Origin: Panorpa germanica
Taxonomy: Eukaryota > Arthropoda > Insecta > Mecoptera > Panorpidae
Direction of reading: 5' to 3'
NCBI GenBank assembly: GCA_963678705.1
Contig: OY783205.1
Location: forward strand, 6,882,001 to 6,946,000
DNA length: 64,000 nt
In this document: positions 16,170-64,000 of the stretch, in pieces
Position numbering within the stretch: position 1 is the first letter of the stretch
Layout of the letters: the number at the start of each line of letters is the position of its first letter
The notes under the pieces: generated by a model
Told to the model about the DNA's origin: nothing
The model's database searches: none
What the model saw: only the letters and a program-made list of their open reading frames with translations
Translations under genes and position numbers: made by a program

Positions 16170-16597
16170 TATAGTGATGAAGAAAAAACGTAGAAAATGA
16201 AAACTTAACTAAAGCGTATCTCGTAATAAAAAAAAAGAAACGTAAGATTAAGAAGATTAATAATTAGGAACCTAATTACTTTTATTTTTAACGATTATGT
16301 CAAAAGAACAACCGTAAAATGAAAATAAGGTAAACTAACTTTATGCTTAAACTTAACCCTAATCTAATGAGAATAAATAGGTAGACCACACCTATTTACA
16401 GGTTTTATCTAAAGCAAAAAAAAATTAGAAACTAAATACGTTAAACTAAACCCTAATCTAATAAGAATAATTAAGTAGGCGACACCTATTTAGGTACCTA
16501 CAGGTATTATGTACCACAAAAAAAAAATATTAGAAACTAAATACTATTTTTAAAACAAACAATACTATACTTATAGAAAACACATACTTATAAATTA

Positions 16598-45100: not shown

Positions 45101-47454
45101 GATGTCATCCACTTCATTTGAATGTAATTTGTTCAGCAACCAAATTAGGATATGAGCATGCGGTAGTCCACGCTTCTGCCATTCCACCGAGTACATATAA
45201 CAACGTGTGTCACCAAAAACTCGATACTTAGTAAGCACATCCATCATAACCTTGAGTTTTTGCTGAAATACTCTAGCGATTATGTCATGGCGATCTTGCT
45301 GTTTTTGGCCCGGTTCCAACTCACGTTCAATTTCCGTCCACTTCGGATTGCATGTGAACGTAATAAATAAATCCGGAGTTCCATAATTTCGCACGTACGT
45401 CATACCGTCTTGAGCGTATTCGTGCATATGTCATGGGCTTCCGATGTAAGATGATGGGTGAATCGTCAGACGTCCAATATTCTGAACATCACCATCTGAA
45501 TGAATAGCATCACGCAAGTGTATATAGTCCTCAGATCGTAGCTTTGCCTGATTGAATCGGATGAACGCTAAACGTTCGGTCTCGACTTTGACATACATGT
45601 CGAAAGCAAATTGCTGGAATAGCCGACGGCACTTCAGAATGACATTCTCCTCATGTGTACGAATCATTATACGATACGCATAGTAATTCATTGCGCTTAG
45701 ATTTTTATTCGTTGATACACCTGAAAATGCAAAATTAAATGAATTGTTAATGGAAACCAATAATAGCAATAATAGCAATAATTAGTGTGTGAATATTGTA
45801 CCAGTAATTGGATCGACCATCTTCAACGTGATGTCGTATCCGTCTTGCCCTTGCCAATAAATGATTAGATATTGTAACGCATTGTACAAACGATGTGTCT
45901 CGATTACACGATGCATGATATTGCTTCTTCGCTGAACGACAATGTCTCGCGATTTAGTTGGATCGCCAACAATAATTGCAGCAACATCATTAACGGTGGG
46001 TGCATTGAATCTTCGCATATGTTCACCTGTTGGGGTACAATCCGCTCTTATGACAAATTTGTGCGTATCCGATGGCATTCGTTCCAATGCTGTTTTGAAC
46101 ATATTAACCACAGCATTATTCGTCAGTAATTCGTCTCTTTAACTGTTGTGTTCCCTGTATATTGCACCGCACATTCAGCTGATCCAACATCGACGAAATG
46201 AAATATATTTGCAGAAATTGATGCGGTTCATTTGGTGTTGGCACCATTGAACCATGCAAATGATATATTTGTCCTTGTATCTGTTATTGCAAACAATCAT
46301 TTGTTGAAGAATACGGTGTAACTTTTGATCGTGTGATGGTGTAGTATGTGGTGTATATGTAGTTGTTATGTGTTGCAATTCATTGTGTTGGTGTGAGTGA
46401 TTGGTTATTTGTGTTGTATCTTTTACCTTGCAAGTCGGCATGAAGCCCCCTTCTCGAATGATATTAGCTCCAACGAAAGTCATGCGAAAGCAGTTATTGT
46501 ATTCAAGGATGTGTTGAAGAAAATGGCTGGAATCGGGATCACTTCCATCGAACAATGGTTTCAGTGGCTGTGGTGGTGTGAGTAATGGATCCAGTTTGAC
46601 TTTTCCACTTGCGCAGCACAATCCAGCCGTTTCTCTTTTGAACTTTAACGCATCGCAATATCGGCATATAGTCGTCGTTCGTCCAATATCTAAATGTTCA
46701 TCATCACTGTAGTTCGCAGTGGGATCATATTGGAATGCCAAGCGATTGTATGATGCCAATGATCTTCGTGTGCTCACGCGTTGTCTCAATCGGGCATTTT
46801 CTGTTATTATATTTTGTCTTTCTTCGCTTAAGTTCTGTGAATACAGTTGTTGCTGGCTTGCATGTCTTGCGCGGCGGCCTATGTTCGCACGTCGTCCTCT
46901 AGGCATTTTGGACTATGGACAGAGTGGTGAATGTAACCTTAAATGCACGATCCACATAATTTACACAGTTTAACTTACCACCTTAAAGACAAATGCCTGC
47001 TGTTGAAATTGAATAAAAATTTGCACAATACACGTGATTGATTTGATGGTTTCCAATTTAAATGTTAGGAAATGAATAACTTATTTTTTTAACTTTTTTT
47101 TCACAATTTCACAATGAACACAATACCGGTTTGTCACATGAAATTAATTAACTGAGCAGAGAATAATGAGTAGCTGTCAAACAATGTATCACGCACCGGC
47201 GCCTACTACTTAAAACACCGGTCTACTTAAAATATTGGTTTGTATATATGCTATGTATCAGAGTAGGCGCTGTATGTAAAAAAAGATTTTCCCGCTTTTC
47301 TGTTGAAATTTTTTCTGAATTCCTGAATTTTCTTTGCTATAAACCTCACGGAGCCCGAGACCTTTCCAACGAATGCAAAACCGTGGAAATCGGTTCGTGC
47401 GTTCTGGAGTTATAATGTCAGGAAGGAAAACCCGACTTATTTTTATATAGTAGA
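42148..47454 (-). mobile_element. Helitron 2, inserted in the solo LTR
   Basis: On the minus strand the 3' end is a hairpin (GGCGAAACGGAGTTCGCC), then GGGTTTGCTAG and host T. The 5' end begins near TCTACTATATAAAAATAAG at 47454, followed inward by the GTCGGGTTTTCC segment. The 5' flank is not a clean A|TC (the adjoining plus-strand base is C), so the exact 5' base is uncertain by a few positions. It carries one decayed RepHel gene. Because it lies inside the LTR, it inserted after the LTR element. Confidence 0.75.
42374..46906 (-). pseudogene. Helitron 2 Rep-helicase, multiply frameshifted
   Basis: Minus-strand frames in order are 46175-46906 (start MPRGRRANIGRR, Cys-rich TICRYCDALKF and LCCASGK), 45782-46111, 45431-45778, 44669-45427 (LFITFTCNPKWTEI, HUH motif GLPHAHILIW), 43920-44732 (YKYVTKGSDMA, with the tyrosine region), 43727-43939 and 42374-43726 (PIF1 helicase: Walker A DAPGGTGKTFV, Walker [33 protein letters not shown]). 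The helicase half of 450 residues is still open, whereas the Rep half is broken by at least four shifts. A low-complexity insertion of about 130 bases interrupts the N-terminal frame near 46290-46430. Confidence 0.85.
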
Positions 47455-48413: not shown

Positions 48414-49100
48414 CTAAACAAAATGAAATAAATTCTTTTTTTCTTTTTTTCTCGTGTAGTCATGAGCAGGACCACCCTCCGGTGCCCGTTTTTCGTTGAA
48501 TATTGGGACACCCTGTATATGTTTTACAATAAAACGGGTTCCATTACAAAGTCCACTATTAGGATTCATATTTCTTAAGAGTATTATGATTGCACCTATT
48601 TTTAAATTTAATTTGTGTGGAGGCATACTGGAGGAGGTGTTAAATTATTTAAAAATTCTACTGGGAAATGATTTTGTTCTGTATCTGAATCAGTTGAAAC
48701 AGAGTCATGACTTAGAAAACAAATTTGATCCCCAACCAATAAATTTAATATTTTTTCATTAATCTGTAATATATCTTCATTTTAAGGACATGAAATTAGG
48801 CGAGATTTTAATTCATCAACACGAACTAAATTAATGTCGCCGTATATTTCATCGACTAACGGTTTCTCAGAAATGAATTTATTTGGAATTTTAACCATAT
48901 TTACAACACTATCATTAATTAGTCTATCTCCAAGTTGTGATAACCACGTCTTAAATTCGATTTCTTCTTGCGCAACTCTCATGTAAATTGTCAGATGCTT
49001 AATTTTGAAAAGAGAGAGAAGAGACTTTAAAATGCAATTTTGAATACATGTTGCAACTATATCAGTAGAGGAACTAAGCCGTTTCTGTGACAAATTAGCA
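48414..49100 (-). pseudogene. Helitron helicase C-terminal fragment
   Basis: Two minus-strand frames are parts of a PIF1-type Helitron helicase. The frame 48782-49093 includes IKHLTIYMRVAQEEIEFKTW, then LSQLGDRLIN. The frame 48414-48626 includes [20 protein letters not shown], then LCNGTRFIV. The Walker motifs and the Rep half are missing. After LCNGTRFIV the fragment runs into unrelated DNA with GGGACACCCTGTATA, reminiscent of a mariner end. Confidence 0.7.
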
Positions 49101-49109
49101 TATTTGGAG

Positions 49110-49380
49110 TATTATTTTTCTGTGGTAGTAATGGTGGGGGTAGTAGATGGTGTGTGTCTGTAATGTTGCAAGTGGAGGGGGTAAATTTGTGTGGTAGGTG
49201 TCTTGTATGTGTAAATATTGGCAGGGGTGGGTAGGGAGGTGTGTTATTGTGTGTGTAAGGTGTAAATTTAGCGGGTATTAGGTTATGTGTGTGTGAGACG
49301 GATGATAGTGTGGTTAATTGAGATGTCATATGATTGGTTGTTTGAGTGTGTACTTAGAGGTATTGTTTATATGAGTAATT
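49110..49380. repeat. G/T-rich low-complexity tract
   Basis: Strong strand asymmetry with many GTGTGT and GGGGGT runs. The matching minus-strand open frame is Pro/Thr/His-rich and probably spurious. Confidence 0.6.
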
Positions 49381-49395
49381 AATTAATGTGTGTGC

Positions 49396-49805
49396 CATAT
49401 TGGGTGTAATGGTAAATATTCATACACCTGTGCATGTTACCCCTCTATATAAAATGATAATTAGTTAGGGTGAATATAAATAGGGTGAATATTTAATTTA
49501 AAGATCACCATATTGGGTGTAATGATGAATTTGAAAATCGCCATATTGGGTGTTATGGTAAATATTCATACACCTTTGCATGTTACATTATGTTTCTGCC
49601 TGTAAGATATGTAGTTAGGGTGAATATTTGATTTGAGGATCACCATATTGGTTGTTATGGTAAATATTCATACACCTGTGCATGTTACGTCATGTTTCTA
49701 CATGTTTTACTGTTAATAGGATAGATATATATAGTTAGGTTGAATATGTAATTTGAAAATCGCCATATTGGGCGTTATGGTAAATATTCATACTCCTGTA
49801 TTGTT
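49396..49805. repeat. Minisatellite with five degenerate units
   Basis: The core CCATATTGGGTGTTATGG, followed by TAAATATTCATACACCTG, recurs at about 49396, 49508 (short), 49541, 49641 and 49762. Spacers of 40-80 bases themselves share AGTTAGGGTGAATAT. The tract ends about 80 bases before the first 128-bp direct repeat. Confidence 0.75.
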
Positions 49806-49888
49806 TCTGCATGTTTTGCGGTTAATTATGTGAGATATTTATTAATTTAACGGTTATAATTTAAAAAAAAAAATGCAAATTCATTTTA

Positions 49889-50016
49889 TTAAAATTTTAC
49901 TAAAGGCATATCTTCTCTATTTTATATACAAACTAAATACAATCATATTTTTGAGAAATATGGTAAAGCTGTCTGCCTCTTCCCCTGGGGCTAGACTTTC
50001 CTCTTGTTGACCGTGT
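49889..50016. repeat. 128-bp perfect direct repeat, copy 1
   Basis: Identical over 128 bases to 51117-51244. It begins TTAAAATTTTACTAAAGGC and ends CTTGTTGACCGTGT. On the minus strand it holds an open frame ending in TAG. Confidence 0.95.
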
Positions 50017-50336
50017 TCCTCCTTTTCTAAATCTTGTTATATATTCATTTTAAAAATAATAATTATAAATGCAAATCACTGCTATAAAATGATTACTTTT
50101 TTTTAAAACCTCCACAGATAGGAGATCCTGGCAATGATAGTGATAGTAAATAAAGTTTATAAATAAATAAGTGTTAGTTTTTTAAGAAAAACAGTATTAA
50201 CACTAATTAAACTAAACAAAATGCAATAGTTCTTTTTAACAAGAATCAAAACAAAAGATTCTTGATTACATATTGTACATATGTAACGCATTGTTTTGCA
50301 AAATCAATACACCATAAAATGAATTGAAGTTTCTAC

Positions 50337-50439
50337 TTTAATGTTTATCAATAATATGTTTCTAGCACTGTTGTGAAATAATCATGAGTTCTTACGTCTG
50401 TGATTATATCACAACAGGAATGTATTGATAAACATTAAA
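50337..50439. repeat. 103-bp near-perfect foldback
   Basis: Outer arms TTTAATGTTTATCAATA (50337-50353) and TATTGATAAACATTAAA (50423-50439) are exact inverse complements. Inner arms 50368-50384 and 50401-50417 match at 16 of 17 positions. A 16-base loop separates them. It could be a very small MITE or a hairpin RNA gene. Confidence 0.8.
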
Positions 50440-50499
50440 AAATCTTCATCTAATGTTATCTGATAACCCATATTGATATTCAAAATTATTTTTGTAGCA

Positions 50500-50749
50500 G
50501 TTTCTTCAATATTCTTCTTCTTCTTCTTCAGTGGCTCGACAGCTTTGGGGGGCCCTGGCCTTCTCAAGAATTTTCTTCCAGGTCTCTTTTTTTGGCCATG
50601 GTCTTCCAATTGATCACTCTCAGAGTGGCGAAATCCCTTTCTAGACAGTCAACCCATCTGAGGTTGGGTCGGTCCCTCCACGCTTGGGCTCGACTAGTCC
50701 TGTTCCTTTCTCTCTCTCTCGATTTCTTCTGATAGAGATCTAATTTCAT
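50500..50749 (-). pseudogene. 3' tail of a LINE-type ORF2
   Basis: The minus-strand frame reads RDRPNLRWVDCLERDFATLR, then VINWKTMAKKRDL, and in the next frame RPGPPKAVEPL. The pattern RP..RW.D....D...L...NW...A..R...W..... is the C-terminal end of several non-LTR reverse transcriptases (RTE/Jockey-like). Only this tail is present. Confidence 0.5.
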
Positions 50750-51116
50750 TAAAGAAAAGACAAATAGAAATCTAATCTAAGTGTAATTTAGAATAGTAGA
50801 AATCTGTAGAAATAGTAGTGATCTTTACGTAAGAGGGTAGAGATATGAAATATGGTACGAACCTTAGATTAACAATAACTTATTATATATTTATTATTTA
50901 CAATAAAACAAAATTCAAACTTTAAATAAATATCAATTGTTCGGTAGTTAACAAATTAAATACGTTTATTAACCAATATTTGAATAAAGAATTAAAAAAA
51001 CGATCTCTAAAAAGTTAGTTCACAACCTAATTGCAGGATAATTAATATGTAATCGATTTTGTCTTTCCTCACAACTTTATATATCTCTCGAATAAAGTGT
51101 ACAAAATTCTCTCCTC

Positions 51117-51244
51117 TTAAAATTTTACTAAAGGCATATCTTCTCTATTTTATATACAAACTAAATACAATCATATTTTTGAGAAATATGGTAAAGCTGT
51201 CTGCCTCTTCCCCTGGGGCTAGACTTTCCTCTTGTTGACCGTGT
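51117..51244. repeat. 128-bp perfect direct repeat, copy 2
   Basis: Identical to 49889-50016. It directly abuts the first coding remnant of the virus-like block, which starts at about 51246. Confidence 0.95.
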
Positions 51245-51245
51245 A

Positions 51246-51702
51246 TATTATAAAGATTTTTTAAGTATAGGATATACAATTAGCCAATTGGCTTCAACTG
51301 AATTAATCCTTAGAGAAAATTTTGAATTTAAGTATCAGTTTTATACAAAGAGTGATGTAGGTCATACATGTTGGAAAAATATTATAAGTTTTAAGTACTG
51401 GTAAATATAATAGTTCTTATGATTATTGTACCACTCAAATATTAAAAAAATTACCTTTCAATGAAATTATTGATTTTAATATAAATTCTATTTTATATTT
51501 GGAAATTTTACAAAATTTAAAATTACATTCACCGGTCAATCAGGATTATATTTTAAAAGTAGTTAAACGTTTAAATTATAATTTTTATAATTTAAACGTT
51601 ATAATATTATAATTTAATATTTATAATTTAGAAGTAGGAGGGGGAGGTAAAAGAGTAATTTCTAAAGCATATAAAAGCCATGACAATTTTAATTTTATTT
51701 AG
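51246..51702 (+). pseudogene. Unknown virus-block protein fragment, truncated at its 5' end
   Basis: Two plus-strand frames joined by a one-base shift near 51402 give about 150 codons with protein-like composition. The first includes FLSIGYTISQLASTELILRE. The second includes KKLPFNEIIDFNINSILYLE and, after one in-frame TAA, VGGGGKRVISKAYKSHDN before TAG at 51700. The fragment begins exactly at the end of the 128-bp repeat, so its 5' part was removed or replaced there. I do not recognise the family. It lies in tandem upstream of the intact 245-residue gene. Confidence 0.45.
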
Positions 51703-51749
51703 TTACAATTTAAAATTGTAGCGTAATTGATCATATATATTTTTACGCA

Positions 51750-52487
51750 ATGGAGTCATTAAATAAAGTTGATTTCATAAATCCAATATATTTGCATAAG
51801 TGTTCGTATTTTTTAAATACAAGTAAAACTAAGCAAATTACAGTTGCCTTAGATGCAAATAATTTTTGTGAGAGTGTTTGTGTGATTGAAAAGTTTAGCG
51901 GGCAGTATGTAAATTTATCACAAAATGACTGGGAAATTATTTTAAATAACAAAACCAGTATTTCCAATTATTTTAATGGAATAATAACATATCTGGAGCA
52001 ACCATGTATTATATTGTCAAAATGTACAATTCATTTTAAAACTTTGTATGAAAAACCGACTATGGTTATCGAGCAAAATTATAACCTTAAATCAATTTTA
52101 ACATTGGCAGATAATGGTTCAAGATCATCTGTATACATGCAAATAGAGTCTTGGCAGAAACTTATGCAGTTAGCAGAGTGCATTACGTTTTCTTTAAATC
52201 AACTTACGTCATGGTCAAAGTCTGCATTGAATATTTTTAATGAAGTGGAGAATAAGTTGTTTTCTTTACTAATAGAAAGTAATGAAAGAAATTATAAAAA
52301 CCATAACAAATACTTTTATGAAAATTTCGTTTTAAATAACATTAATAACATAGAATTAAATACCTATAAATTGTTTACTAATATATCATCAAATATGAAT
52401 GTAAAGTTACTAAGTTTAGAAATTAAGGCGCTTTGTATAGACTTACTTAAGACTCAAATACAAGAAAAAAATAATGAATATGTATAA
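51750..52487 (+). CDS. Intact unknown protein of the Polinton/adintovirus-like block (245 aa)
   Basis: The ATG at 51750 opens an uninterrupted frame ending in TAA at 52487. The product is Asn/Lys/Ile-rich, has no signal peptide or clear membrane segment, and includes KTKQITVALDANNFCESVCV, an SRSSVYMQIESWQKLMQL segment and a predicted helical C-terminus (LLSLEIKALCIDLLKTQIQ). An AATAAA follows within 30 bases. I do not recognise the family. Its neighbours are virion genes, so a structural or assembly role is possible, but this is inference only. Its integrity contrasts with the decay around it. Confidence 0.7.
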   Translation: MESLNKVDFINPIYLHKCSYFLNTSKTKQITVALDANNFCESVCVIEKFSGQYVNLSQNDWEIILNNKTSISNYFNGIITYLEQPCIILSKCTIHFKTLYEKPTMVIEQNYNLKSILTLADNGSRSSVYMQIESWQKLMQLAECITFSLNQLTSWSKSALNIFNEVENKLFSLLIESNERNYKNHNKYFYENFVLNNINNIELNTYKLFTNISSNMNVKLLSLEIKALCIDLLKTQIQEKNNEYV

Positions 52488-52559
52488 TTGTAAATATGTA
52501 TAGAGTGTATATAAATAAAATTTTATAAATGAAAGAACATGTATTTTATTTATTAAGGT

Positions 52560-52583
52560 ATATTTATTTATTTATTTATTTTA
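52560..52583. repeat. (TTTA)n microsatellite
   Basis: Short run of TATT/TTTA repeats between two convergent genes. Confidence 0.9.
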
Positions 52584-52619
52584 ATTACAATCAGAGTTAG
52601 AATTAAAATTACATTCAAA

Positions 52620-52928
52620 TCAGTTTCTTATTTGGCTTGGTGGTCCATCTCTTTGAATTCTACCCTTATTATAATGTTTAAAACATAAGCGGCGTTTTTG
52701 AATTTCAACATTTTCTTTTAAGTATGATGGTAATCGATTCCAATTTTGTTCTATATCGGTAGATAACATTATATAGTACAAGAAAAATTCTGTTGGCAAG
52801 TAATGTTAATCTTCTTCAGTAAGATCTTCTAACAAACATTCATTGTCTTTATATTTTCTTAATACAGCTCCAACTTTTAAAAGTGTTTGAGCAACTTCTT
52901 CATATTTATTTAAAAAATTTGAATTCAT
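52620..52928 (-). pseudogene. Small unknown virus-block gene with one nonsense codon
   Basis: From an ATG at 52928 the minus-strand frame gives 40 codons (MNSNFLNKYEEVAQTLLKVG on), then a TAA at 52806-52808, then 61 further in-frame codons ending QRDGPPSQIRN and TGA at 52620. The second part is basic (IQKRRLCFKHYNKGRIQRDG). It sits 60 bases downstream of the major capsid gene on the same strand. Family not recognised. The coding bias continues past the stop, which suggests a recent nonsense mutation. Confidence 0.5.
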
Positions 52929-52991
52929 TCTTGAGTTTGCAAGTGATTATTCTTTGATGGTTTTACACATACTAGTTATTATAAACATTAT

Positions 52992-54193
52992 TTATGTAAT
53001 TTTATTAACAATTCCAGATAAAGGTTTATACTCGATAATTTTGTCGTGTATAATTAGGGCAAAGGCGCGAACCAAACCAACAATCATTTCTGATGTTTCT
53101 AATTCAAGTCTAATATCCACTGTGACAGATTTTAAAAATTCGTTTTGTTTCGAACAATTTATAACTATTAGGGGTGCTTTTTCTTTAAAATCTTTTAAAT
53201 TTAAAACAGGGTTTGGATTTTTATCATAGTAAGATTTTTGAAAATTTGCATACATTTCATAGGCTACCGAATATTTATTATTATTGTAATCCAAGTTCAA
53301 GTTGTCGTATGGGTATATTTCAGAATTTAAATATAATTTTACATTTCTTAAATTACAAGTATCAAATTTACTCATATCCTTTGTAATGTCATTTTTAGAT
53401 TCCCTTTGTAATCCTAATATGACATAACGTTGTTTTTCAAGAGATGTAGTTGTTTTTATTGACCAGGTTTGATTTGTTGAACTTGACAAGGCAGGATATT
53501 CGTATAGTTCCCACGCTCGAAAACCAATATATAATGATCTATCACGTTCCATTGTTTGTAATAAATCCAATTTCTTTTTGTCTGAGACTTGAACGTGGGG
53601 CATTCGCCAAGAAATCTTTTCAATGACAACTTTTGGTAATACTTTTAATTCTTTTATCCAAATAGCGTTATTATCTTTTTTGATCGAACTAATATTAATT
53701 CGTGTTTTACTGGTAAAATAATTTTTTTAAAGTCTTCGCAGAAACCAAATATTGTTTTTAAAGGAATACATACATTAAACTTTCCATTTGTATCTATTAT
53801 ATTGGTATCCTTATCACACCACCCAAAATTTTGAACATGAATATCGTTATTGTTATGCGAAACATAACCTATCATAGTAGATGTTATACTAGGATTTCTA
53901 TTTGAATCAATTTCAACAGAATTTATTTCATATCTTATAGTTTCAAACAAATATAGAATGCCATTTAGTATGAAGACTGGTGTAGCTTTTGTTGTGTCTT
54001 TTGTCTTGCCTTCAATATATAAATATGATTCAGATGGTAAAGTAAAAACATTATGTTGATTTATTGGGATACGGATTTCGTCATTATTTTCAAAAGCAGT
54101 AGTAGAATATGGGTTATATGTATGTATCTCATATTGACTTATAGATTCATCGAAAACGATTTTATCTTCAACATTTAGTATACTAGAAGTCAT
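52992..54193 (-). pseudogene. Double jelly-roll major capsid protein of Polinton/adintovirus type, one frameshift
   Basis: The N-terminal part, from the ATG at 54193, contains FTLPSESYLYIEGKTKD and HELILVRSK. A single-base frameshift near 53685 then moves the frame to the second part (open frame 52992-53603), with PHVQVSDKKKLDLL, FRAWELYEYPAL, EKQRYVILGLQ, YPYDNLNLDY and INCSKQNEFLKSVTVDIRLE. These blocks and their order match the hexon-like capsid protein of Polintons and adintoviruses (database entries often called F54H12.2-like). The protein would trimerise into capsomers of an icosahedral virion. About 400 codons in total is a little short but normal for the group. Apart from this one indel the gene is well preserved. 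No joined protein is given here. Confidence 0.8.
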
Positions 54194-54336
54194 TGTGGAG
54201 TAATTAATTTAAATCCCAATGATTTAAGAAACTGTTTATTTTTTAGTGTTAGTCTCTTGAGAGGTTTTGGTGTACTATGATGGCTTTGATTGAACGATGA
54301 ATTATATATTGTTTTTAAATTGTGACAAATACCCAT
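54190..54336 (-). CDS. Intact 48-aa basic protein between penton and major capsid genes
   Basis: The ATG at 54336 lies two bases after the penton stop, and its TGA overlaps the major capsid ATG (ATGA, 54190-54193). This tight packing is the main argument that it is real. The C-terminal half is strongly basic (KPLKRLTLKNKQFLKSLGF). Polinton-like viruses encode small basic virion proteins, but I cannot assign this one to a family. Confidence 0.6.
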   Translation of the reverse strand: MGICHNLKTIYNSSFNQSHHSTPKPLKRLTLKNKQFLKSLGFKLITPQ

Positions 54337-54338
54337 TG

Positions 54339-55073
54339 TTAAACTTTTCTAATATGTAATCTACAGGAAATATTTTCTTTTCTAAAGTTAATAAGCTCCC
54401 CTTTTTCATCTACAATTGTTAAGGTAATATTATCTATTTTTCGTATAACGATTGGAAGGTAAATGATTTGTTTCGGAATTTTAATGATTTTATATCCTGG
54501 TGGAACCGATGGGAAAAATTCATGTATAGTATGAACCAATTGACCGTTTAAATATGTACCGGAAGTAATGTTACATTCAATTCGTATATTATTTACCCTA
54601 ATAATATTTACCGGTAAGTTAGATACATATAACTTATTAGGTTCTAATACTTGCTTATTAAATCCTAGTAATGAAACAATACAATTTTCTTTTGAAAAGT
54701 CTATTTTTTCAGAACATATTATTTTACTTTGGAGGGTGTTTGTATTCGCGGTTAAATTTAAAAATACTTCTTTTATTTGTTTATCAGATATTTCTTTAAA
54801 TTCGCTGTTGTGTTTTATCGCTCTAGAATCACCCATGTTTAACCTTAAATATTCTTGAATATCCTCCAATTCATATGAACCTACTGGTATTGTAACAACT
54901 TTACTATCTCCATAATAAAATTTATTGTCTGTGTCATTAATGTTTGGTATGGAATTAAATGTTTGAAAGTCTACTATCCCCAATTCATATATTCCATCAT
55001 GCAAATCTATTGGTGGAAAAATATCTGCACTTAATATAGATTCATTTCCATTAATTGTAAATGTCATAGACAT
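54339..55073 (-). CDS. Penton-like minor capsid protein (single jelly-roll), intact
   Basis: The frame of 244 residues starts at the ATG at 55073 (SMTFTINGNESILSADIFP). Features seen in Polinton/adintovirus pentons are YELGIVDFQTFNSIPNI near the N-terminus, a long beta-rich middle, GTYLNGQLVHTIHEFFPSVP, and a C-terminal sheet with LPIVIRKIDNITLTIVDEKG and ISCRLHIRK. Pentons plug the five-fold vertices of the capsid. The gene has no break and is followed after two bases by the 48-residue ORF. The assignment rests on the C-terminal pattern and gene order, so it is strong but not certain. Confidence 0.7.
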   Translation of the reverse strand: MSMTFTINGNESILSADIFPPIDLHDGIYELGIVDFQTFNSIPNINDTDNKFYYGDSKVVTIPVGSYELEDIQEYLRLNMGDSRAIKHNSEFKEISDKQIKEVFLNLTANTNTLQSKIICSEKIDFSKENCIVSLLGFNKQVLEPNKLYVSNLPVNIIRVNNIRIECNITSGTYLNGQLVHTIHEFFPSVPPGYKIIKIPKQIIYLPIVIRKIDNITLTIVDEKGELINFRKENISCRLHIRKV

Positions 55074-55152
55074 TATTATTTTTGAATAAACCTTTCACGT
55101 TAAGCTTAGTAATAAGAAATGACAATAAAACTCATGTATTTATAACATTATA

Positions 55153-55551
55153 TTATTTATTGAAAACTACAGAATTAAAATACAAAAAATTTAAACATAA
55201 ATGTCCACAATTCACAGTATTAAATTTTTGAAATCTATCATAGTTATATTGGATATTATTATTGATACCAAAGTATTGAATTGCTTCTATTGGGGGTTTT
55301 AAATTACCAAAACTATCAAAGTATAAAATATGTTTATTTCTTTTTATGTAAGCTACCCAATGTGTTCCTGCTGATGTCTTATCATCTAAATTTATAATAC
55401 CAGTCTCATTTAATAAATTTTTTTTATGTAAGTTATTTCTCATAAATACCCCTCTAAAGTAAGGAATATTTAATTTCGTTGCATATTTTCTTAAATCAAC
55501 ATCAGTAAGAGCTCGTTTACGTAGCTTTACCGGAAGTTTTTTGGATACGTA
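55153..55551 (-). pseudogene. Adenain-type cysteine protease (virion maturation), start codon lost or unidentified
   Basis: The reading frame is open from 55551 to the stop at 55153. The conserved region starts near 55519 with LTDVDLRKYATKLNIPYFRG, well before the first ATG at 55443, so the true start is upstream or has been lost; no ATG lies between the upstream TAG and this region. The catalytic set of adenovirus-type proteases is visible: His in GTHWVAYI, Asp in LYFDSFG, a Gln in the segment FQKFN and the nucleophile in NCGHLCLNFL. The enzyme would cleave capsid precursors during maturation. Length (about 130 residues) is short compared with adenain. It overlaps the end of the PLA2 gene by about 25 bases in another frame. 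Confidence 0.75.
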
Positions 55552-56406
55552 CTAATATATAACCCTAATTCAGTCTTATAAGGTTTTAAATAAATCCCTT
55601 TGCCAGATTTTCCAATAGCAATAGCTTCCATGGTTTCATTGTGTTTCTTAGCTTCAGCCAACAATGTTTTTGCATCCTTTGATTCATTTATGGCTTTTGC
55701 AATACTTGCTACACCACCTGCCAGTCTGCTGATAATCCCGCAAATAAGCTGATAATCCCGCAAATAAGGGAATTAAAAACGGTAGAAAACCTCCTACCTT
55801 TGGTACAGGAATTATTCTTAGCTTGTTAACTTTAAATTTAGTTTTTTTATTAATTGATTGTTTTGCGGCTTGTGATGAAATTTTAATAGCGTTTGTCACA
55901 CTTTTAGGATTGTCAGGGTTAATTAAAGTATTTTTTAGTGCACTACGAGCATTAAGGACAGCTTTTTTAAATACTGTCATACTATGCTTTGCCTTTCCAC
56001 TACCATTTACTTTCTTTTTAATTTTTTTATTCCGTTTTAGCCCCATACCTAGTTTTGTTTTTATATTCATGATATTAGCCACAAGTAATGACGCCAAACG
56101 TTCACTTAATTTTGAATCTTTGGAAAAATATCGTGTCCAGGCTTTTTTAATCAGTATTTTGTCAGCTTCGTGTCTTTTACTTACATCTTCATAACGGTGA
56201 TATGCAATGTCATGTTCTTTACAAGCTGAATCCAATGCATTAATTCCTTGATCTCCTCGGTTTAAACGTTCTATTAAATGTGTTCCAGGACCGCAATAGT
56301 TGTACCCAGGCAAATTCAATTCAAAAGGTAATTTATTTATTAATTTATTAACCAGTCCATCTCCCTTCTTAACTCTTATCATACTGACTAAAGTATCTGC
56401 TATCAA
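55527..56406 (-). pseudogene. Minor capsid protein with parvovirus-type phospholipase A2 domain, broken by a 20-bp duplication
   Basis: From the start at 56406, residues about 30-70 show the calcium-loop motif YNYCGPGTHL and the catalytic LDSACKEHDIAYHRY (His-Asp pair), the signature of the VP1-type PLA2 of parvoviruses, also found in some Polinton/adintovirus relatives. A long Lys-rich middle and a hydrophobic GGFLPFLIPLFAGLSA segment follow. At that point a tandem 20-bp duplication (55728-55767) shifts the frame. The downstream frame continues with ASIAKAINESKDAKTLLAEA and GKGIYLKPYKTELGLYIS. In related virions the PLA2 opens the endosomal membrane during entry. The catalytic residues are intact, and the break lies after the hydrophobic segment. 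Confidence 0.8.
55728..55767. repeat. 20-bp tandem duplication inside the PLA2 gene
   Basis: GCTGATAATCCCGCAAATAA occurs twice head to tail (55728-55747 and 55748-55767). Because 20 is not a multiple of three, it causes the frameshift. Confidence 0.95.
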
Positions 56407-56859
56407 CCAATTTTATACTTTATAATAATTTCATATATAAAGATTAAACACTTAGAATATATTTTATTAGTTTATAACATATCCTTGATAAAACAATGAA
56501 GTTTGTTAAACAAAAACAAACTCTTTCTGTTAAAAATGTTGACAACAAAGGTAATTTTCACATTTACAATAAAACTCATGGACCACTATTACCAAATGAC
56601 ATAAGATGCATTATTTGTGGACCATCAAGCTGTAGAAAAACCAATGTTATGTTTAATTTAATTCAAAACATATACATTTATTCAAAATACTAACTATACT
56701 TTGTACTAACCCAAATATAAAATGCTGGAAGAAATTATAAATAACATTAATGGTATGGGATATTATACATACACTGACAATGATGAGCTTATTAGACCTG
56801 AAAATGCAAAACCACATTCAATATTTATTTTTGATGATGTTGCTTGCGATAAACAAAAT

Positions 56860-59661
56860 TTTTTTTTTTTTTTTTTTTATTTTCCCTTTTAATTAATTTA
56901 CAATCTGTCCGAGGACATTAAGTAAAATTGTATGACATAAATGACATGTGAAGTTGAAATCCATTGATGACTCCCCCTTACACCTTACCCCTTTATACTA
57001 TGTACAATAACTGAGTTTAACTGATATTTTATTAGTACGATGACATTTCAATTTTAGTTTTCATTTGGGTTTAAATTCGCTAAGTCCTTGGGATCTGCTC
57101 TTTTCAGTCGTCTTACGGGCCTATGATGGAACAACTTCACTGCTGCTTCATTGGGGAGATTCTGCAATCGAAGGTGGTACTACCAACTGTAGCTTTGGAT
57201 TTCCTCTTTGACCAGGGGCATTCGAAGATCTTTATGTACTAACCAGTTAGGGACATATCTTGGGACATTTAATATTTGTTTCAATATTTTGTTTTGGAAA
57301 CGTTGGAGAATTTCTATGTTTGACATGCTAGCCCAGCCCCATAGTTGTATACCATAAGTCCATATTGGCCGAATTATTGTCTTGTATATTAGCAGTTTAT
57401 TTTCCAGAGACACTTGCGATTTCCAGCCAAGAAGCCAATATAGTTCTCTTCGTTTTTCTTCTAGTTGAAGCCTCTTTTTCCATATGTGGGTTTTCCATGT
57501 TAGACGTCTGTCCAAGTGCATGCCTAGATGAGCTGTCTCTGCCTGAGGAAGTGCAATGTTATTAAGGGTCACTGGGGGACACGTACACCTTTTTAAAGTA
57601 AATGTCACGTGCACAGATTTTATTTCATTTACTTTTATCCGCCAGTTGTTTAGCCATTCCTGTATCTTAAGCAGGTGTCGTTGCAGTTTCATCGAGGCAG
57701 TAGCCGGATCCTTATGAAGTGCTAACACAGCAGTGTCGTCTGCAAATGTAGCTACTGTAGTTTCGGACGAGCCGGGAAGATCTGCTGTAAACAGTAGATA
57801 CAGAATGGGACCGAGTACACTGCCTTGCGGAACACCAGATTCGATTTTGCGCATAGTAGATTGTCCGTCCTGGTACTTTACGACAAACTTTCTATTTGTC
57901 AGGTACGATTTCAATATTACAAAGATGTCGTTGGGCAATGCTACTTTAAGCTTGTATAGTAATCCAGAATGCCAAACTCTATCAAAAGCTTGGCTTATAT
58001 CTAAAAATACTGCGGAGCAGTATTGCTTTGTGTGTAGCGCTGTGTTGATGGTACAAACAACTCGGTGGATCTGCTCGACTGTAGCATGTTTTTCCCTGAA
58101 GCCAAATTGGTAGGTCGGTATCAGTTTGTTAACTTCTACTATAGCTTTGAGCCTCTTGAGCAGTAACTTCTCAAATAGTTTTGACACTATAGGTAATAGG
58201 CTGATTGGTCTGTATGAGGTAACCTCCTTTTCATCTTTTCCGGGTTTCGGGATCAGTATTACTTCAGCAATTTTCCACTTTGTCGGAACTATTCCCAGTC
58301 TTACCATTGAGTTGAATAATATTGTTAAATATCTCGTTCCTTTTTCCGGCAGTTCTTTCAATATTTTACCTCCTATCCTGTCGTTACCTGGTGCTTTATT
58401 GGATTTTATGTTGAATTTGATCATATTTTGGACTTCAGAAGTACTAAATCGCTTGACAGTTTCACTAGCAGTGGGTGGACTCCTTAGAAACTCGTGTATG
58501 TATTTTTCCTCTTCTTCACTGCGGCTTGTAGGAAGTGGCTTGAATACATCTTCGAGGTGTTTCGCGAAAGTTGCAGCTTTTTCATTATTGCTTCTTGCCC
58601 AATTGCCATCACTAGTTTTAATTGGGGTGTTACGTATTTTGGGTTGTTTGAGCTGCTTGGTGGCTTTCCATAAGGAGTAGTTTGTGGTTTCTGTAGCGGT
58701 TAACTTCTCTAGGTATTGTTCTAGCTCTTAATTTTTGATGTCGTGTAAGAGGTTCTTAAGTTCCTTACAAGCCTTGTTGAATAGCGTTTTATCTCTGGGA
58801 GTCCTAGTGTTTTGCCAAATTCGTCTTAACCTTCTTTTCTCAGCAATTTTTTGTTTTGCTAACATAGGGCAGGATACCGTTCTTCTGCGTGGGTTGCTTA
58901 GTGGGGTTGCCTCTTCAGCTGCATCAATTATAGTTTTATTTAGCCTCTCAACTGCTTGATCGATGTTATCTTCTGTTTTGAGCGGTATGTTGCAGTTAAG
59001 GTTAGAATTTATTAAACTCCGGAATAGTTCCCAGTTGGTGTTCCTGTTTGTAATACTTGTCATCGGTGGTTGCTCCAGTATTTGTGTACTGTAGGTTAAA
59101 ATAATTGGCGAATGATCTGAGGAAAGGTCTAGACATGACTCTATCTTGAGGTATTTACTTGATATACCCTTTATGACACTGAAGTCTATAAGGTCCGGGA
59201 TTTTTGTCCTGTCCGACGGCCAGTATGTTGGTTCACCAGTGGAGAGTGTAGTTAGGCTGTTCTCTTCTATGGACTTGTACAGCTCGTTTCCTTTGGGGTT
59301 TGTGAGCCTAGACCCCCAGTCTGGATGTTTGGCGTTATAGTCACCTCCAGCGATGAACCGTGGTCCTAAACTATTAAAGAACGCTGTAAACTGTTCTTTC
59401 TTGATGCTGTATTTTGGAGGACAATAAACGGCTGTGATGACTATGTTTCTGTTTAATTCCTCAACCTCTATGCTTGTTGCCTGGAGTGAACGGTCTTGGT
59501 GGGTATTTAATTGGTGGTGCTTAATTGATGACTTAATAATGATGGCAGTACCACCATGGGCTTTATCGTCTGGGTGTTTTGTGTCGTAGATTTTGTAGTT
59601 TGGAATTTTTATGTAGCTTTTTGATGTAAAATGAGTCTCCGATATCAGCATGATGTCTATA
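56860..59661 (-). mobile_element. LINE J1 (Jockey-type), 5'-truncated, inserted in the viral ATPase
   Basis: On the minus strand the element ends in a poly(A) tail (the T run from 56860) and is bordered by perfect 15-bp target duplications. Its right (5') end at 59661 starts inside the endonuclease domain, so ORF1 and the first part of ORF2 were never inserted. Length about 2.8 kb. Confidence 0.9.
57054..59661 (-). pseudogene. LINE J1 ORF2: endonuclease-reverse transcriptase with two nonsense codons
   Basis: One minus-strand frame runs from the 5' truncation to the TAA at 57054. It is interrupted only by TAA at 58728-58730 and TAG at 57180-57182. The endonuclease part has DIMLISETHFTSKS, ITAVYCPPKYS, AGGDYNAKHPDWGSRL and the SDHSPIIL triad segment. 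The reverse transcriptase has RPISLLPIVSKLFEKLLLKR, SQAFDRVWHSGL, GVPQGSVLGPILY and the catalytic FADDTAVL. The C-terminal region has PIWTYGIQLWG. The enzyme nicks target DNA and copies its own RNA. The first Met at 59699 lies outside the element, in the viral gene, so it is not a real start. Confidence 0.9.
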
Positions 59662-60140
59662 TGCGATAAACAAAATAATATTAGAAATTTCTTTAGCATG
59701 GGCAGTCACAATTACATAGACTGTTTTTACTTATGTCAGACATATAGCAAAGTTCCAAACAGTTGATACGAGATAATACTAATTTTATTATATTATTTAA
59801 ACAAGATGACTTAAATTTAAAGCATATATATGATGATCATGTAAACTTTGATTTTCCGACTTTTCTAGAGTTTAAACAAGTTTGTAATTTATGTTGGAAC
59901 TATGATAAATATGCGTTTATGGTAATAGATAAGAATAGTGACTTAAATAAAGGGAGATACAGGCAAGGATTTGATATGTTTTTAGATATAACTAAGTAAC
60001 CTTTACAATAATAATCAGTGTTGAGGTAACCATCTTCATAATAACATGCATTTATTATCCTAATAAACATTGATTACGTTCAAATTACGTTCCCATTACG
60101 TTGAGTTTACGTTCAAGTTGCATAAAGTTTACATGTAACC

Positions 60141-61342
60141 ATGTTTAAATCAAAGAAGCGTGCAAAAAATACTGTGGTTAAAATAAAGACTCCTCCTACT
60201 AGATTAAAAAAAAGGAATAGTAAACGTGAAATAATAAGCAATACGACTAATGATGAAGATAAAAAATTAACACGCGATATTATTAAATCAAGCGATTCTA
60301 TAAGACAAAAGTATCTTGCATTAAAACTAGGGGAATCTGAGGCACAAAGGTACCTTGACAAACAGCTTGAACCAATAACTACACCACTAAACATACTAGC
60401 TAATAAAAGTACTTCCAATTTTAAATTAGTGCAACCAATCAAACAAGATATTGATACAAGACCGTATGATTTCAAGGTTTAAACAATTAAATCTAAATTA
60501 AATAACATGTTAAAAGAACCCCTAGACACTACATTTATACCAGAACAGCAAAATGATTTAACATTAGCTAAAGAACCAACAATGGAACTTAGTCAGTTAG
60601 ATGATGAGGTTTTTGAATCAAATGAACCCTTAGAATATAGTAGAGTACATGATCCAAACTTATTTAAGGCATCTAAAGAACTGTCTGATGTTGAAGAAAA
60701 TCTTAAAATGCAAGTTGATAAATACGCCTTTTAATATTTAATTGATTTTAATAGGCGTGAAGGTGATCCTAGTATATTTGATCACATATTTGGTATAAAT
60801 TTAGAAGACGGTAATTTAATATTGGGAAAAACACTAGTTACATTTTATAAAGAGGGTATAATAATAGGAGATAAAAAATATAAATCATCTCCTGGATTAT
60901 ATGAATTGCTTTTTAAAATAGATCCAAGCGCAAATATTTATAGTGAGGAAGATTTAGAGGACTACAAAACAATTTTAACTGATACTAATGCACATAGAAC
61001 ATTAGATTTATCTAATGGTAAAATTAAATCTAGCAAAGGTATAAAATACAAAAAAATTATATCGCTATTATTTCCTCCTCAAACAAAATTAAGTGCTCCA
61101 GCGTCTTCAACACCATATACTTCAGAAAAAGTGCAAAACGTTCGATCAAGACTTTTGCAGCGTTCGTCCTCAGTTGGTTTACCAAATAATAAACGTTTTG
61201 GTAAAGGCTTTAATAATCTTATTCCAAATTATATGACTTTCAATAAAAATCCAAAAGATTACATTTATTGGGATAATCCAAACGAATTAGTTGATAGACT
61301 AAGATTACTAATTAGTTAAAAAACGGCTGGCAATACATCACA
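60141..61342 (+). pseudogene. Polinton-associated protein of unknown function (DUF8207-like), three nonsense codons, cut by LINE J2
   Basis: Three open segments (60141-60482, 60507-60734 and 60822-61319) lie in one and the same plus-strand frame from the ATG at 60141. The interrupting stops end at 60482, 60734 and 61319, and no indel separates them. The start is basic (FKSKKRAKNTVVKIKTPPTR), followed by a helical region (SIRQKYLALKLGESEAQRYL). The late part has SSPGLYELLFKIDP, LTDTNAHRTLDL and the well-preserved end YIYWDNPNELVDRLRLLI. I associate this last block with the DUF8207 family, common in Polinton-derived genes of animals. Coding sequence continues past the last stop for about eight codons until the poly(T) of LINE J2 at 61343, so its C-terminus should reappear beyond that LINE, outside this window. 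Function unknown. Confidence 0.65.
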
Positions 61343-64000
61343 TTTTTTTTTTTTAATATTATCTCAATGAGTTAACAGCAATCTGCCAGTGCAGGCAATA
61401 AGCTTATGATATGACTTAATATAAAAGTGACATGTGAGAGAATCAATCCAATGACTGATCTCTGTAATTATTACATTCTATGTTGCAAGATATTCATTCA
61501 CTGCTTATTTGAGCACTTATCTTAGGCCTAAAGCTAAGTCAGCTGGTTGACAACGCTTTAATCTACGGATTTCACTGTTATCACTCTCGTATAGTTGGTT
61601 TGCTAGCACATTTGGGTGATTAGAGAATCTCTCACTATAATTAACACTGTACTGATAAATTACATCGTTGATGGATTCTAGTGGAATGTCCCGCTGAATA
61701 TCCTCGTTGGATATATAGTATGGGGCGTCAACGATGGCACGTAAAACTTTATTTTGAAAACGCTGCAGTATGGAAATATTGGATTTGCTTGCCGTCCCCC
61801 AGAGCTGAATTCCGTAAGTCCAGATCGGTTTTAATATAGCCTTATAGAGTAGTATCTTATTTTCTAATGAAAGTTTCGATTTACGACCTATCATCCAGTA
61901 CAGCTTGCTATAGTTTGAGGTCAAGCTGTTTACGTTTCGTAAAGATATGCTTCCGCCATGTAAGCCTCTTGTCCAGATGAATACCGAGATATTTAGCATC
62001 ATCGGATTGTGGTAGTTCGCAGTTGTTAATTTTCACTGGTGTACACGTTCCTCTGCGCATGGTAAAAGTTACATGTACGGATTTGGATGCGTTGACTTTT
62101 ATCCGCCATTTCTTGAGCCATACTTCGATCATGTTGAGGTTGTTCTGAAGATACTGTGATGCTAGACGAGGGTCTGTGTGCGATGATAGTACTGCTGTGT
62201 CATCAGCAAACGTTGCTACAGTAGTTAATCTTGTAATTGGCAGACCTGCTGTATAAAGAAGATATAGAGTAGGTCCAAGCACGCTTCCCTGTGGGACTCC
62301 TGATTGGATAGGATACAGATCTGTAAACTCGCTACCTTGTTTCACTAGGAAGTGCCTATTTGTCAAATACGATTTTAACAGCTGAAAGTGAGAGTATGGG
62401 AGCAATTTTTTTATTTTAAATAAGATTCCTTTATGCCATACTTTGTCGAAGGCTTGCGATATGTCCAGGAAGGCAGCTGAGCTGTATCTTTTTGCGTTTA
62501 GATCTTTGTTAACAAGTCGATGTACTTGTTCAATAGTTCCGTGTCTATTCCTGAATCCAAATTGATGCTCAGCGATTAGCTTTCTTGTATCGATTATCTC
62601 TTTCAATTTTTTGACATATATTTTTTCAAGAACCTTAGACATCATTGGTAATAAGCTTATAGGCCTGTATGAAGTTACCTCTTCTGGTTTTTTTCCGGGT
62701 TTAGGGATCATGATAATTTGGGCAACTTTCCAACTATTTGGGAAATAGTTTGTTCGAAGTATTGCATTAATTATGAATGTTAATAGTTTTATGCATTTCC
62801 ATGGTAACTCATGAATGATTCTACCAGTTATTAGATCAAATCCGGGTGACTTTTTAATGTTTACTTCTTTGGAAATTGTATATAATAGGTCAGTGTATTT
62901 AATTTTTGAATGGGGCAGATCCATTTGGAGAGGAGCATCCAGATATTCAGAAATTTCGTTTTCTTCAGCTGCAGATATTTCTGAAGAATATGGTTTAAAA
63001 ACCTCTTGCAGGTGATTAGCAAACATCAGAGCCTTATCTTTATCATTTTTGGCCCATTTATTCTTACCGTCTTTAATAGGTGGGTTGTGCAGTTGAGTAC
63101 TCTTCAGTTTTCGTGTAGCTTTCCATAGCGAGTAGTCTGATGCCTCAGACGGCGTTAGATTTGCAAGGTAATTTTGAATTTTAAGGTTTTTATATTCTAA
63201 TAACATGTCTTTCAATTCTTTTGTTGCTCTGTTCAGTTTTCGTTTGTACACCGAATCTCTCCTTTGTTGCCATAGTTTCCGCAGATGTATTTTTTGCATT
63301 ATTTTTTCCATAATAATGAGTGGCATATCATTTTTCCTTGGAAATATTTTATGTTTGGGGGTAGCAAACCATGCTGCTTCTTGTATGTTTTTTGTTATGC
63401 TTTCCACAGCTACTTCTATGTCTATTTCAGATCTTAATGGTATTTTTAGTGAGGTTAGGTCTTCTAACTTATGTCTGAATAGATCCCAGTCCGTTCTTTT
63501 ATTATGTAAATATGGCTCAGTTTCTTTATTGAGTATCTTCTTATAAACAGTGAGTATTACGGGTGAATGGTCAGACGATAATTCCAAACAAGATTCTGCC
63601 TTACATTTCTTGGTATCAATACCTTTCATAATAAAAAAGTCAATCACATCAGGAACTTTTTCCTTGTCAGAAGGCCAATAGGTTGGCTGATATGTTGACA
63701 TATGTTGCAGCTTATTTGCTGTCATGATTTTTACCAATTCTCTGCCCTTAGACGTAGTTAGTCTGGAACCCCATGTTGGATGTTTGGCGTTATAGTCACC
63801 TCCTGCTATAAATCTATTTCCCAATGTTTTAAAGAACTCCTCAAAATGCAGCTGTTTGTTGTTGTGCTTCGGTGGACAATATATAGCAGATATAATTATT
63901 GGTCCGTGTACGTCTTCTATTGAGACACTCGTTGCTTGTAGATGATCCTTAGTGTACTTATCTCGTTCATGATGTTTAATGTTATCTCTTATTATTATGG
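61343..64000 (-). mobile_element. LINE J2 (Jockey-type), runs off the right edge
   Basis: The T run at 61343-61354 is the poly(A) tail of a minus-strand LINE inserted in the last viral gene. ORF2 stays open to the right window edge, so the 5' end is not visible and the target duplication cannot be checked. It is a relative, not a copy, of J1: motifs agree but the sequences differ widely. Confidence 0.85.
61517..64000 (-). pseudogene. LINE J2 ORF2: endonuclease-reverse transcriptase, one frameshift
   Basis: The frame is open from the right edge (upstream part reads VHGPIIISAIYCPPKHNN) through FIAGGDYNAKHPTWGSRL, the SDHSPVIL segment, RPISLLPMMSKVLEKIYVKK, SQAFDKVWHKGI, GVPQGSVLGPTLY and FADDTAVL, to 61908. 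A shift between 61908 and 62002 leads into the second frame, with LENKILLYKAILKPIWTYGI and the end at 61517. Endonuclease and RT catalytic motifs are intact; only the C-terminal 130 residues are out of frame. The Met at 63824 is not a true start, because coding continues upstream. Confidence 0.9.

What the first reader, a model, noticed from the sequence alone, without database searches (positions are those of the whole stretch)
51246..61342. Endogenous Polinton/adintovirus-like virion gene block in an insect-type genome
Seven or more genes with virus logic sit together: PLA2 minor capsid, adenain-type protease, penton-like, a 48-aa basic ORF and the major capsid gene on one strand; packaging ATPase, a DUF8207-like protein and a 245-aa unknown on the other. 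Catalytic motifs of PLA2 (CGPGT, HD) and protease (H, D, C) are visible. The combination of a parvovirus-type PLA2 with a hexon-type capsid is notable. No polymerase B or integrase is in view, so this is a capsid module, a partial element, or one that continues beyond LINE J2.
Basis: partly seen in the sequence, partly recalled or inferred. Interest (0 to 1): 0.88.

Follow-up and report, generated by a model that had tools for sequence, protein, structure and literature searches.

The report
Broken copy of an insect Maverick
This stretch is a damaged copy of a Maverick (Polinton/adintovirus-type) virus-like mobile element that has many related copies in the same genome; the kind, including its phospholipase gene, is already known from insects.

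Summary
It starts at window 49064 with a terminal inverted repeat and runs past LINE J2 and the window edge, through an integrase gene reduced to its 5' end and a PolB-type gene, to part of a right terminal repeat. MCP, PLA2, ATPase, DUF8207-like and integrase genes are broken here; a LINE lies in the ATPase gene with a 15-bp target duplication. The same genome gave 39 further scored MCP copies. The seven best-scoring are 99.1-100% alike within the groups compared; 6 of 7 keep a long MCP-sized frame. Of 22 copies with both ends located, 16 have perfect 6-bp target duplications and 2 have 5/6 (control 8 of 629 pairs). PLA2 in insect Mavericks was published in 2018, so the headline combination is not new. 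Less expected: two subfamilies with unrelated ends share a nearly identical MCP/ORF245 stretch but have diverged penton and protease genes (likely module exchange), and one insertion seems to have multiplied inside a satellite array. New member of a known kind.

The parts
49064..49920 (+). Left terminal inverted repeat with minisatellite-like units; element starts AGTAGAGG; left flank TATATC
   Evidence: Matches both ends of other copies, inverted at their right ends and in L014; internal repeats
49889..51244 (.). Stretch bounded by two identical 128-nt direct repeats; largely foreign sequence where two other copies carry left-end ORFs (137 and 118/142 aa)
   Evidence: repeat D3; L012/L013 rejoin the window at 51247; 50017-51116 not found in the loci held
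51247..51401 (+). Remnant of a left-end reading frame
   Evidence: tblastn 95.7% over 46 aa to L012 and L013
51750..52487 (+). ORF245, unknown protein, open here and in 4 of 5 other copies sampled
   Evidence: No relatives; frames and A-vs-B comparison; one pair 6 synonymous, 6 nonsynonymous, binomial p 0.014. Against: its codon-position G+C is nearly flat, unlike the other genes
52623..52928 (-). Small ORF broken by an in-frame stop; position corresponds to ORF8 of Spodoptera Mavericks
   Evidence: published order; assignment by position only; no Pfam match
52992..54193 (-). Major capsid protein gene, broken by a frame shift into two frames
   Evidence: PF21738 in both halves; frames of 394-406 codons in 6 of 7 other copies, three of them matched to this gene by blastp
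54190..54336 (-). 48-aa basic ORF, overlapping the MCP start
   Evidence: sequence; no family match sought
54339..55073 (-). Penton-like protein gene, open
   Evidence: 686 relatives, best 73% identity; beta-rich AlphaFold2 model from a 64-row alignment; A-vs-B dN/dS about 0.09
55153..55551 (-). Adenain/Ulp1-type protease, 132-codon frame
   Evidence: C48 0.0086 and C5 0.019; same 132-codon frame in three A copies, A-vs-B dN/dS about 0.24
55527..56406 (-). PLA2 minor virion protein gene, C-terminus shifted out of frame by a short tandem duplication
   Evidence: PF08398; 980 relatives incl. PLA2X of Megastigmus wasp adintovirus; profile matches viral capsid proteins of the parvovirus type at 8e-5; frame read-outs
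56478..56859 (+). 5' part of packaging ATPase gene, frame-shifted, Walker A altered, Walker B-like stretch present
   Evidence: motifs recalled
56860..59661 (-). LINE J1 inserted in the ATPase gene, flanked by a perfect 15-bp target-site duplication (56845-56859 and 59662-59676)
   Evidence: RVT_1 and endonuclease domains occur in 2 window ORFs each (which does not name the members)
59662..59999 (+). 3' part of packaging ATPase gene, frame-shifted
   Evidence: Pox_A32 0.068 for 59662-59757; read-out
60126..61319 (+). DUF8207-like gene (position of ORF2 in Spodoptera Mavericks), one frame with two in-frame stops
   Evidence: no Pfam match of note
61344..64000 (-). LINE J2 inserted in the element, running past the window edge; the element resumes at C2:6947673
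   Evidence: L010/L011 match the window up to 61343; L014 matches

Best explanation
The block is the left part of one old copy of a Maverick/Polinton (adintovirus-like) element. When alive, such an element is a linear double-stranded DNA with inverted repeats at both ends. Its integrase pastes it into the host with a 6-bp target duplication (shown for 16 of 22 other copies). A PolB-type polymerase copies it (frame with motif C seen; activity inferred). A double jelly-roll MCP, a penton-like protein and a protease build and mature a particle, an A32-type ATPase packs the DNA, and the PLA2 protein helps the particle cross a membrane (inferred from parvovirus VP1). The window copy is dead: MCP, PLA2, ATPase and DUF8207-like genes are broken, most of the integrase is deleted and two LINEs sit inside it. 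The family spread recently: the genome holds many copies, and the sampled A-type ones are near-identical with several of these frames open.
For: Gene content and order. LINE J1 target duplication inside the ATPase gene. 40 scored MCP matches, window included, of 328 candidates; 40 full-length integrase matches, 40 scored of 399 candidates. Seven best-scoring copies 99.1-100% alike within each orientation group. rve 3.5e-17 plus chromo 7e-5; a 1272-codon frame with YTDTDS and an endonuclease VII stretch. Terminal repeats. 6-bp duplications 16 of 22 perfect, 2 of 22 with 5/6, control 8 of 629. Penton dN/dS about 0.09 between subfamilies.
Against: No PolB family profile matched the 1272-codon frame. 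ATPase and protease matches are below cut-off. The right outermost terminus of the window copy was not found in L014 or L096, so its own target duplication cannot be shown. 4 of 22 copies lack a target duplication, and 17 of 39 could not be scored for it. Two of three B-type copies sampled have a broken MCP frame and one a broken penton. No particle, transcript or activity was observed.
Confidence: 0.95

Rival explanations
1. A transposon that only moves inside cells; the capsid genes are passengers or serve intracellular spread.
For: Many copies in one genome with target duplications; no particle data; three copies on C6 look multiplied with a satellite array rather than by infection.
Against: Penton and protease evolve under purifying selection between subfamilies (dN/dS about 0.09 and 0.24), and 6 of 7 sampled A-type copies keep a long MCP-sized frame.
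Confidence: 0.3
2. A stand-alone capsid-gene fossil captured once, with no replication genes.
For: No integrase or PolB domain in the window (108 of 135 ORFs of at least 70 aa).
Against: Integrase remnant, PolB-type gene and right terminal repeat follow beyond LINE J2; many related copies.
Confidence: 0.01
3. Domesticated by the host: some genes, such as ORF245 or the penton, are kept for a host function.
For: ORF245 and penton are open in the window although neighbours are broken; ORF245 is open in 4 of 5 other copies.
Against: Window-versus-copy dN/dS is higher than between subfamilies (ORF245 0.56-1.4; penton 0.28-0.46 against A copies); a short open frame or two among broken ones is expected fairly often (my estimate, not from a call); one of 5 copies has ORF245 broken.
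Confidence: 0.04
4. Ordinary host genes.
For: None found.
Against: Virus-type domains, compact overlapping genes, uninterrupted MCP-sized frames in 6 of 7 copies, terminal repeats, target duplications.
Confidence: 0.005

Closest known systems
Spodoptera frugiperda Maverick 1 and 2 (PMC5803895, KY042018/KY042019)
   Same: PLA2/parvovirus-VP1-like CAP, PRO, A32-type ATP, an ORF2 after ATP, INT with a chromo domain, a large POLB with an endonuclease VII stretch; the listed order CAP-PRO-ORF6-ORF7-ORF8 fits PLA2-protease-penton-MCP-small ORF here.
   Different: There eight small genes lie in tandem on one strand; here ATP-ORF2-INT point away from the virion genes and POLB lies on the opposite strand at the right end. 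ORF6 there is 148 aa, the penton-like frame here 244-251. Sequences were not compared directly.
Megastigmus wasp adintovirus (deposited record)
   Same: Its PLA2X protein is 53% identical over 87% of the window PLA2. Weak matches of the PLA2 protein to adenovirus protein X (PX 0.32; Adeno_PX 0.34) are not significant.
   Different: Only this protein was seen; the rest of that genome was not available here.
Adintoviridae as defined by Buck and co-workers (passages of PMC11071296)
   Same: Hexon-type capsid, rve integrase with C-terminal chromodomain, PolB-type gene.
   Different: N-terminal OTU-like PolB domain and BLASTp recognition of reference hexons not tested. The founding paper (10.1093/ve/veaa055) was not held.
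Parvovirus VP1 phospholipase
   Same: Same PLA2 family, CGPGT and HD stretches invariant in 17 aligned proteins.
   Different: In parvoviruses PLA2 is part of the capsid protein (recalled); here it is a separate basic protein.

Membership tests
Maverick/Polinton | rve-type integrase | tested here: met
   rve 3.5e-17 in L010, 3.5e-16 in L011; mostly deleted in the window copy
Maverick/Polinton | Protein-primed PolB | tested here: inconclusive
   1272-codon frame with YTDTDS and endonuclease VII stretch; no PolB profile match
Maverick/Polinton | A32-type packaging ATPase | tested here: inconclusive
   Pox_A32 0.068 on one 32-aa piece; Walker-like motifs seen by eye
Maverick/Polinton | Adenain-type protease | tested here: inconclusive
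   C48 0.0086, C5 0.019, both below cut-off; no PDB match of note
Maverick/Polinton | Double jelly-roll MCP | tested here: met
   PF21738 3.9e-69 and 5.4e-26; no PDB sequence match of note
Maverick/Polinton | Minor (penton) capsid protein with single jelly roll | tested here: inconclusive
   Beta-rich model, pLDDT 79.7; no significant PDB sequence match; fold search off
Maverick/Polinton | Terminal inverted repeats | tested here: met
   L012 left end versus L017 right end 97.8% over 502 bases inverted
Maverick/Polinton | 6-bp target-site duplication (size recalled) | tested here: met
   16 of 22 copies perfect, 2 of 22 with 5/6; control 8 of 629
Adintoviridae | Integrase with C-terminal chromodomain | tested here: met
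   Chromo 7e-5 at residues 258-285 of 286; 23.1 bits, just under the curated cut-off of 25.1
Adintoviridae | PolB with N-terminal OTU-like domain | not tested
   No Pfam OTU match, but no structure was modelled
Adintoviridae | Hexon reciprocally recognisable by BLASTp with reference adintoviruses | not tested
   Reference hexons were not fetched; all three protein searches went to PLA2, ORF245 and penton

The most novel reading that the evidence does not exclude
The genome carries a recently active population of virion-coding Mavericks in which lineages with unrelated terminal repeats swap a capsid module (most of the MCP plus ORF245) as a block, while penton, protease and PLA2 stay with the lineage; and a copy can also multiply passively, as part of a satellite higher-order array.
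Probability: 0.45. Interest if true: 0.55.

Novelty: new member of a known kind. Interest (0 to 1): 0.3.

Why it matters
The copy itself adds one more decayed Maverick to an insect genome. The family around it is more useful: a multi-copy set with clear target duplications, measurable selection on virion genes, and two subfamilies whose ORF245 and MCP stretches are 0.94-0.99 alike while the penton-to-PLA2 stretch is 0.82-0.91. That makes capsid-module exchange between co-resident Mavericks directly testable.

Tried and rejected
Host-gene and single-capture readings were rejected (see rivals). IMG/VR scans with MCP, penton, ORF245 and the DUF8207-like piece found no relatives; the PLA2 profile found only L001, a viral contig that looks phage-like by eye, with a short PLA2-like stretch. 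A tblastn of the penton against phage records found nothing. NCBIfam gave nothing useful. A single-sequence model of ORF245 was useless (mean pLDDT 35.7). DUF8207 is in no paper held. The name PLA2X gave only unrelated papers. Papers: PMC5803895, passages and its section 11 in full, both parts; PMC11071296, PMC8363768, PMC10675110, PMC11071308 and PMC9963324, passages only; other papers search listings only. Print status of PLA2 in Mavericks was checked by searches. For Maverick module exchange no literature search was run; for satellites only the listing was seen, so no claim is made that either is unpublished. How common the satellite is in the genome could not be measured.

Full report
What was checked. 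Pfam finds a phospholipase A2-like domain (PF08398, 5.5e-16) in 55687-56406, and the double jelly-roll domain (PF21738) in both halves of the MCP region (3.9e-69 and 5.4e-26). The protease piece matches C48 and C5 below their cut-offs. The long frames are beyond chance: in 500 Markov-1 simulations of the same composition the longest frame was 183 codons and 19 simulations had any frame of 120 or more, while the element shows 257, 251, 244, 242 and others.

State of the copy. The MCP gene is split into two frames, the PLA2 gene loses its C-terminus to another frame through a short tandem duplication, the DUF8207-like gene has two in-frame stops, and a small minus-strand ORF at 52623-52928 has one. 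LINE J1 sits in the ATPase gene with a perfect 15-bp target duplication at 56845-56859 and 59662-59676. A Pfam scan of 108 of the 135 window ORFs of at least 70 aa (27 left out by me) listed 24 families at E up to 0.01. None is an integrase core or a DNA polymerase B; most are Helitron/PIF1-type helicase, Mutator-like and LINE domains, besides the capsid and PLA2 domains.

Is the combination new? No. The PLA2 protein has 980 relatives, among them a deposited PLA2X of Megastigmus wasp adintovirus at 53% identity over 87% of the query. A profile from an alignment of the window protein with 16 of these (A1, 17 rows) matches solved viral capsid proteins at 8e-5 (named Capsid protein) and, from 0.011 on, Capsid protein VP1; that these are parvoviruses is recalled. 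Two Mavericks of Spodoptera frugiperda were described in 2018 with a PLA2/VP1-like CAP, and CAP proteins of other insect Mavericks cluster with them (PMC5803895). That paper says these Mavericks lack the PY protein and does not assign ORF7; by position and length (404 aa) ORF7 fits the 406-codon MCP frame seen here, but I did not compare the sequences.

The rest of the element. A search of the window's own assembly (464 Mb, 249 contigs; window at C2:6882001-6946000) with 1001 bases of the MCP region scored 40 of 328 candidates: the window itself, 18 at 96-97% and 21 at 90-91%. Pieces fetched beside two of these copies show that to the right of the DUF8207-like gene lie an integrase frame (rve 3.5e-17, chromo 7e-5), then on the other strand a 1272-codon frame with an endonuclease VII stretch and the motif YTDTDS, then an inverted terminal repeat. 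No PolB profile matched that frame, so PolB rests on motif, size, position and the published Spodoptera layout. The left terminal repeat corresponds to window 49064-49920. The window copy goes on after LINE J2: L014 matches an integrase 5' remnant, most of the PolB-type gene and part of the right repeat up to C2:6953509. About 1.1 kb covering most of the integrase and the end of the PolB-type gene is missing, and the outermost right end was not found in L014 or L096. At the left, 49921-51246 is largely foreign: the two other copies read there have ORFs of 137 and 118/142 aa.

Mobility. I fetched both expected ends of the 39 other copies (77 of 78 regions; one lay off its contig). Both ends with at least 6 flanking bases were located in 22 copies; 17 could not be scored. 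Sixteen have a perfect 6-bp duplication and two have 5 of 6; four have none. Pairs of flanks taken from different copies reach 5 or more in 8 of 629 cases, left flanks equal to the one shared on C6 being left out. A first count with an offset in the second terminus type gave 11 of 23 and was replaced. Three of the sixteen share one duplication and one position in a 1.57-kb satellite on C6, so they look like one insertion copied with the array; a fourth C6 copy shares the right-hand position but its left end was not located. In all, 11 of 39 copies have this satellite in at least one fetched flank; its background frequency is unknown.

Age and selection. The seven best-scoring other copies are 99.1-100% identical over about 4 kb within each orientation group (L003/L008; L004-L007 and L009), and the window copy is 97.3-97.5% to L003/L008 (the values near 0.55 in that table compare opposite strands and mean nothing). 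Six of these seven have a frame of 394-406 codons where the MCP lies; one does not. Three of the six were matched to the MCP by blastp (L003, L007, L008), the others judged by length. Of three B-type copies sampled, two have a broken MCP frame and one a broken penton, so B looks more decayed. An 801-base integrase query scored 40 of 399 candidates, giving 40 full-length matches at 97-100% and three short ones; the two 40s are caps, so copy numbers are lower bounds. Between A and B copies the penton has dN about 0.06 and dS 0.66-0.70 (dN/dS about 0.09), the protease about 0.24: these genes evolved as working proteins. The window copy against A copies gives 0.28-0.46 for penton, 0.55-0.63 for protease, 0.40-0.58 for the MCP C-part and 0.56 for ORF245, but only 0.12-0.15 for the MCP N-part, so part of that divergence is older than its death. 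ORF245 compared between L100 and L097 shows 6 synonymous and 6 nonsynonymous changes (binomial p 0.014, one pair only). It has no relatives in the protein search or IMG/VR and a flatter codon-position composition than the other genes; I take it as a real but unexplained gene.

Mosaic subfamilies. One A copy was compared with three of the 21 B copies. They are 0.94-0.99 alike over 51301-52650 and 53281-54180 (52681-53280 was not compared), and 0.82-0.91 from about 54181 to 55980, with the change near the MCP start. Their terminal repeats show no extended similarity. The simplest reading is recent exchange of the MCP/ORF245 block between lineages; gene conversion inside the genome would look the same.

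How it most likely works. Shown: gene content, terminal repeats, 6-bp duplications, many copies of which the sampled A-type ones are young, purifying selection on penton and protease. Inferred: protein-primed replication, packaging by the ATPase, maturation by the protease, and membrane passage helped by PLA2, by analogy with parvoviruses. The copy in the window can do none of this as it stands.

Verdict. A correct observation of a known kind of element. The copy is ordinary; the family has two features worth a specialist's look: capsid-block exchange and spread with a satellite.

Noticed in passing
L033/L034 (C9:15749023 copy) and L049/L050 (C2:7409665 copy): In two of the 22 copies the two flanks are not direct duplications but inverted copies of each other: an exact run of 549 bases in one and 99% over the 252 bases available in the other. 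Assembly artefact or hairpin-type event, unexplained.
   Followed up: partly
L012:1-1546, L015, L016, L017: A tandem repeat of about 1.57 kb flanks 11 of 39 copies on at least one side; four copies in it on C6 lie 18.8, 17.6 and 44.6 kb apart on one strand.
   Followed up: partly
window 49889-50016 and 51117-51244: Two identical 128-nt direct repeats 1228 bases apart, bounding a stretch that lies where two other copies have left-end genes; no target duplication seen.
   Followed up: partly
window 48414-49111: The element's left end lies beside or within a Helitron-like PIF1 helicase remnant (by eye from the ORF list; Helitron and PIF1 domains in the window).
   Followed up: no
   Followed up: no
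window 12450-16208, 42377-46912: Long minus-strand ORFs in a window with Helitron and PIF1 domains (six members match Helitron_like_N); which ORF carries which domain was not sorted out.
   Followed up: no
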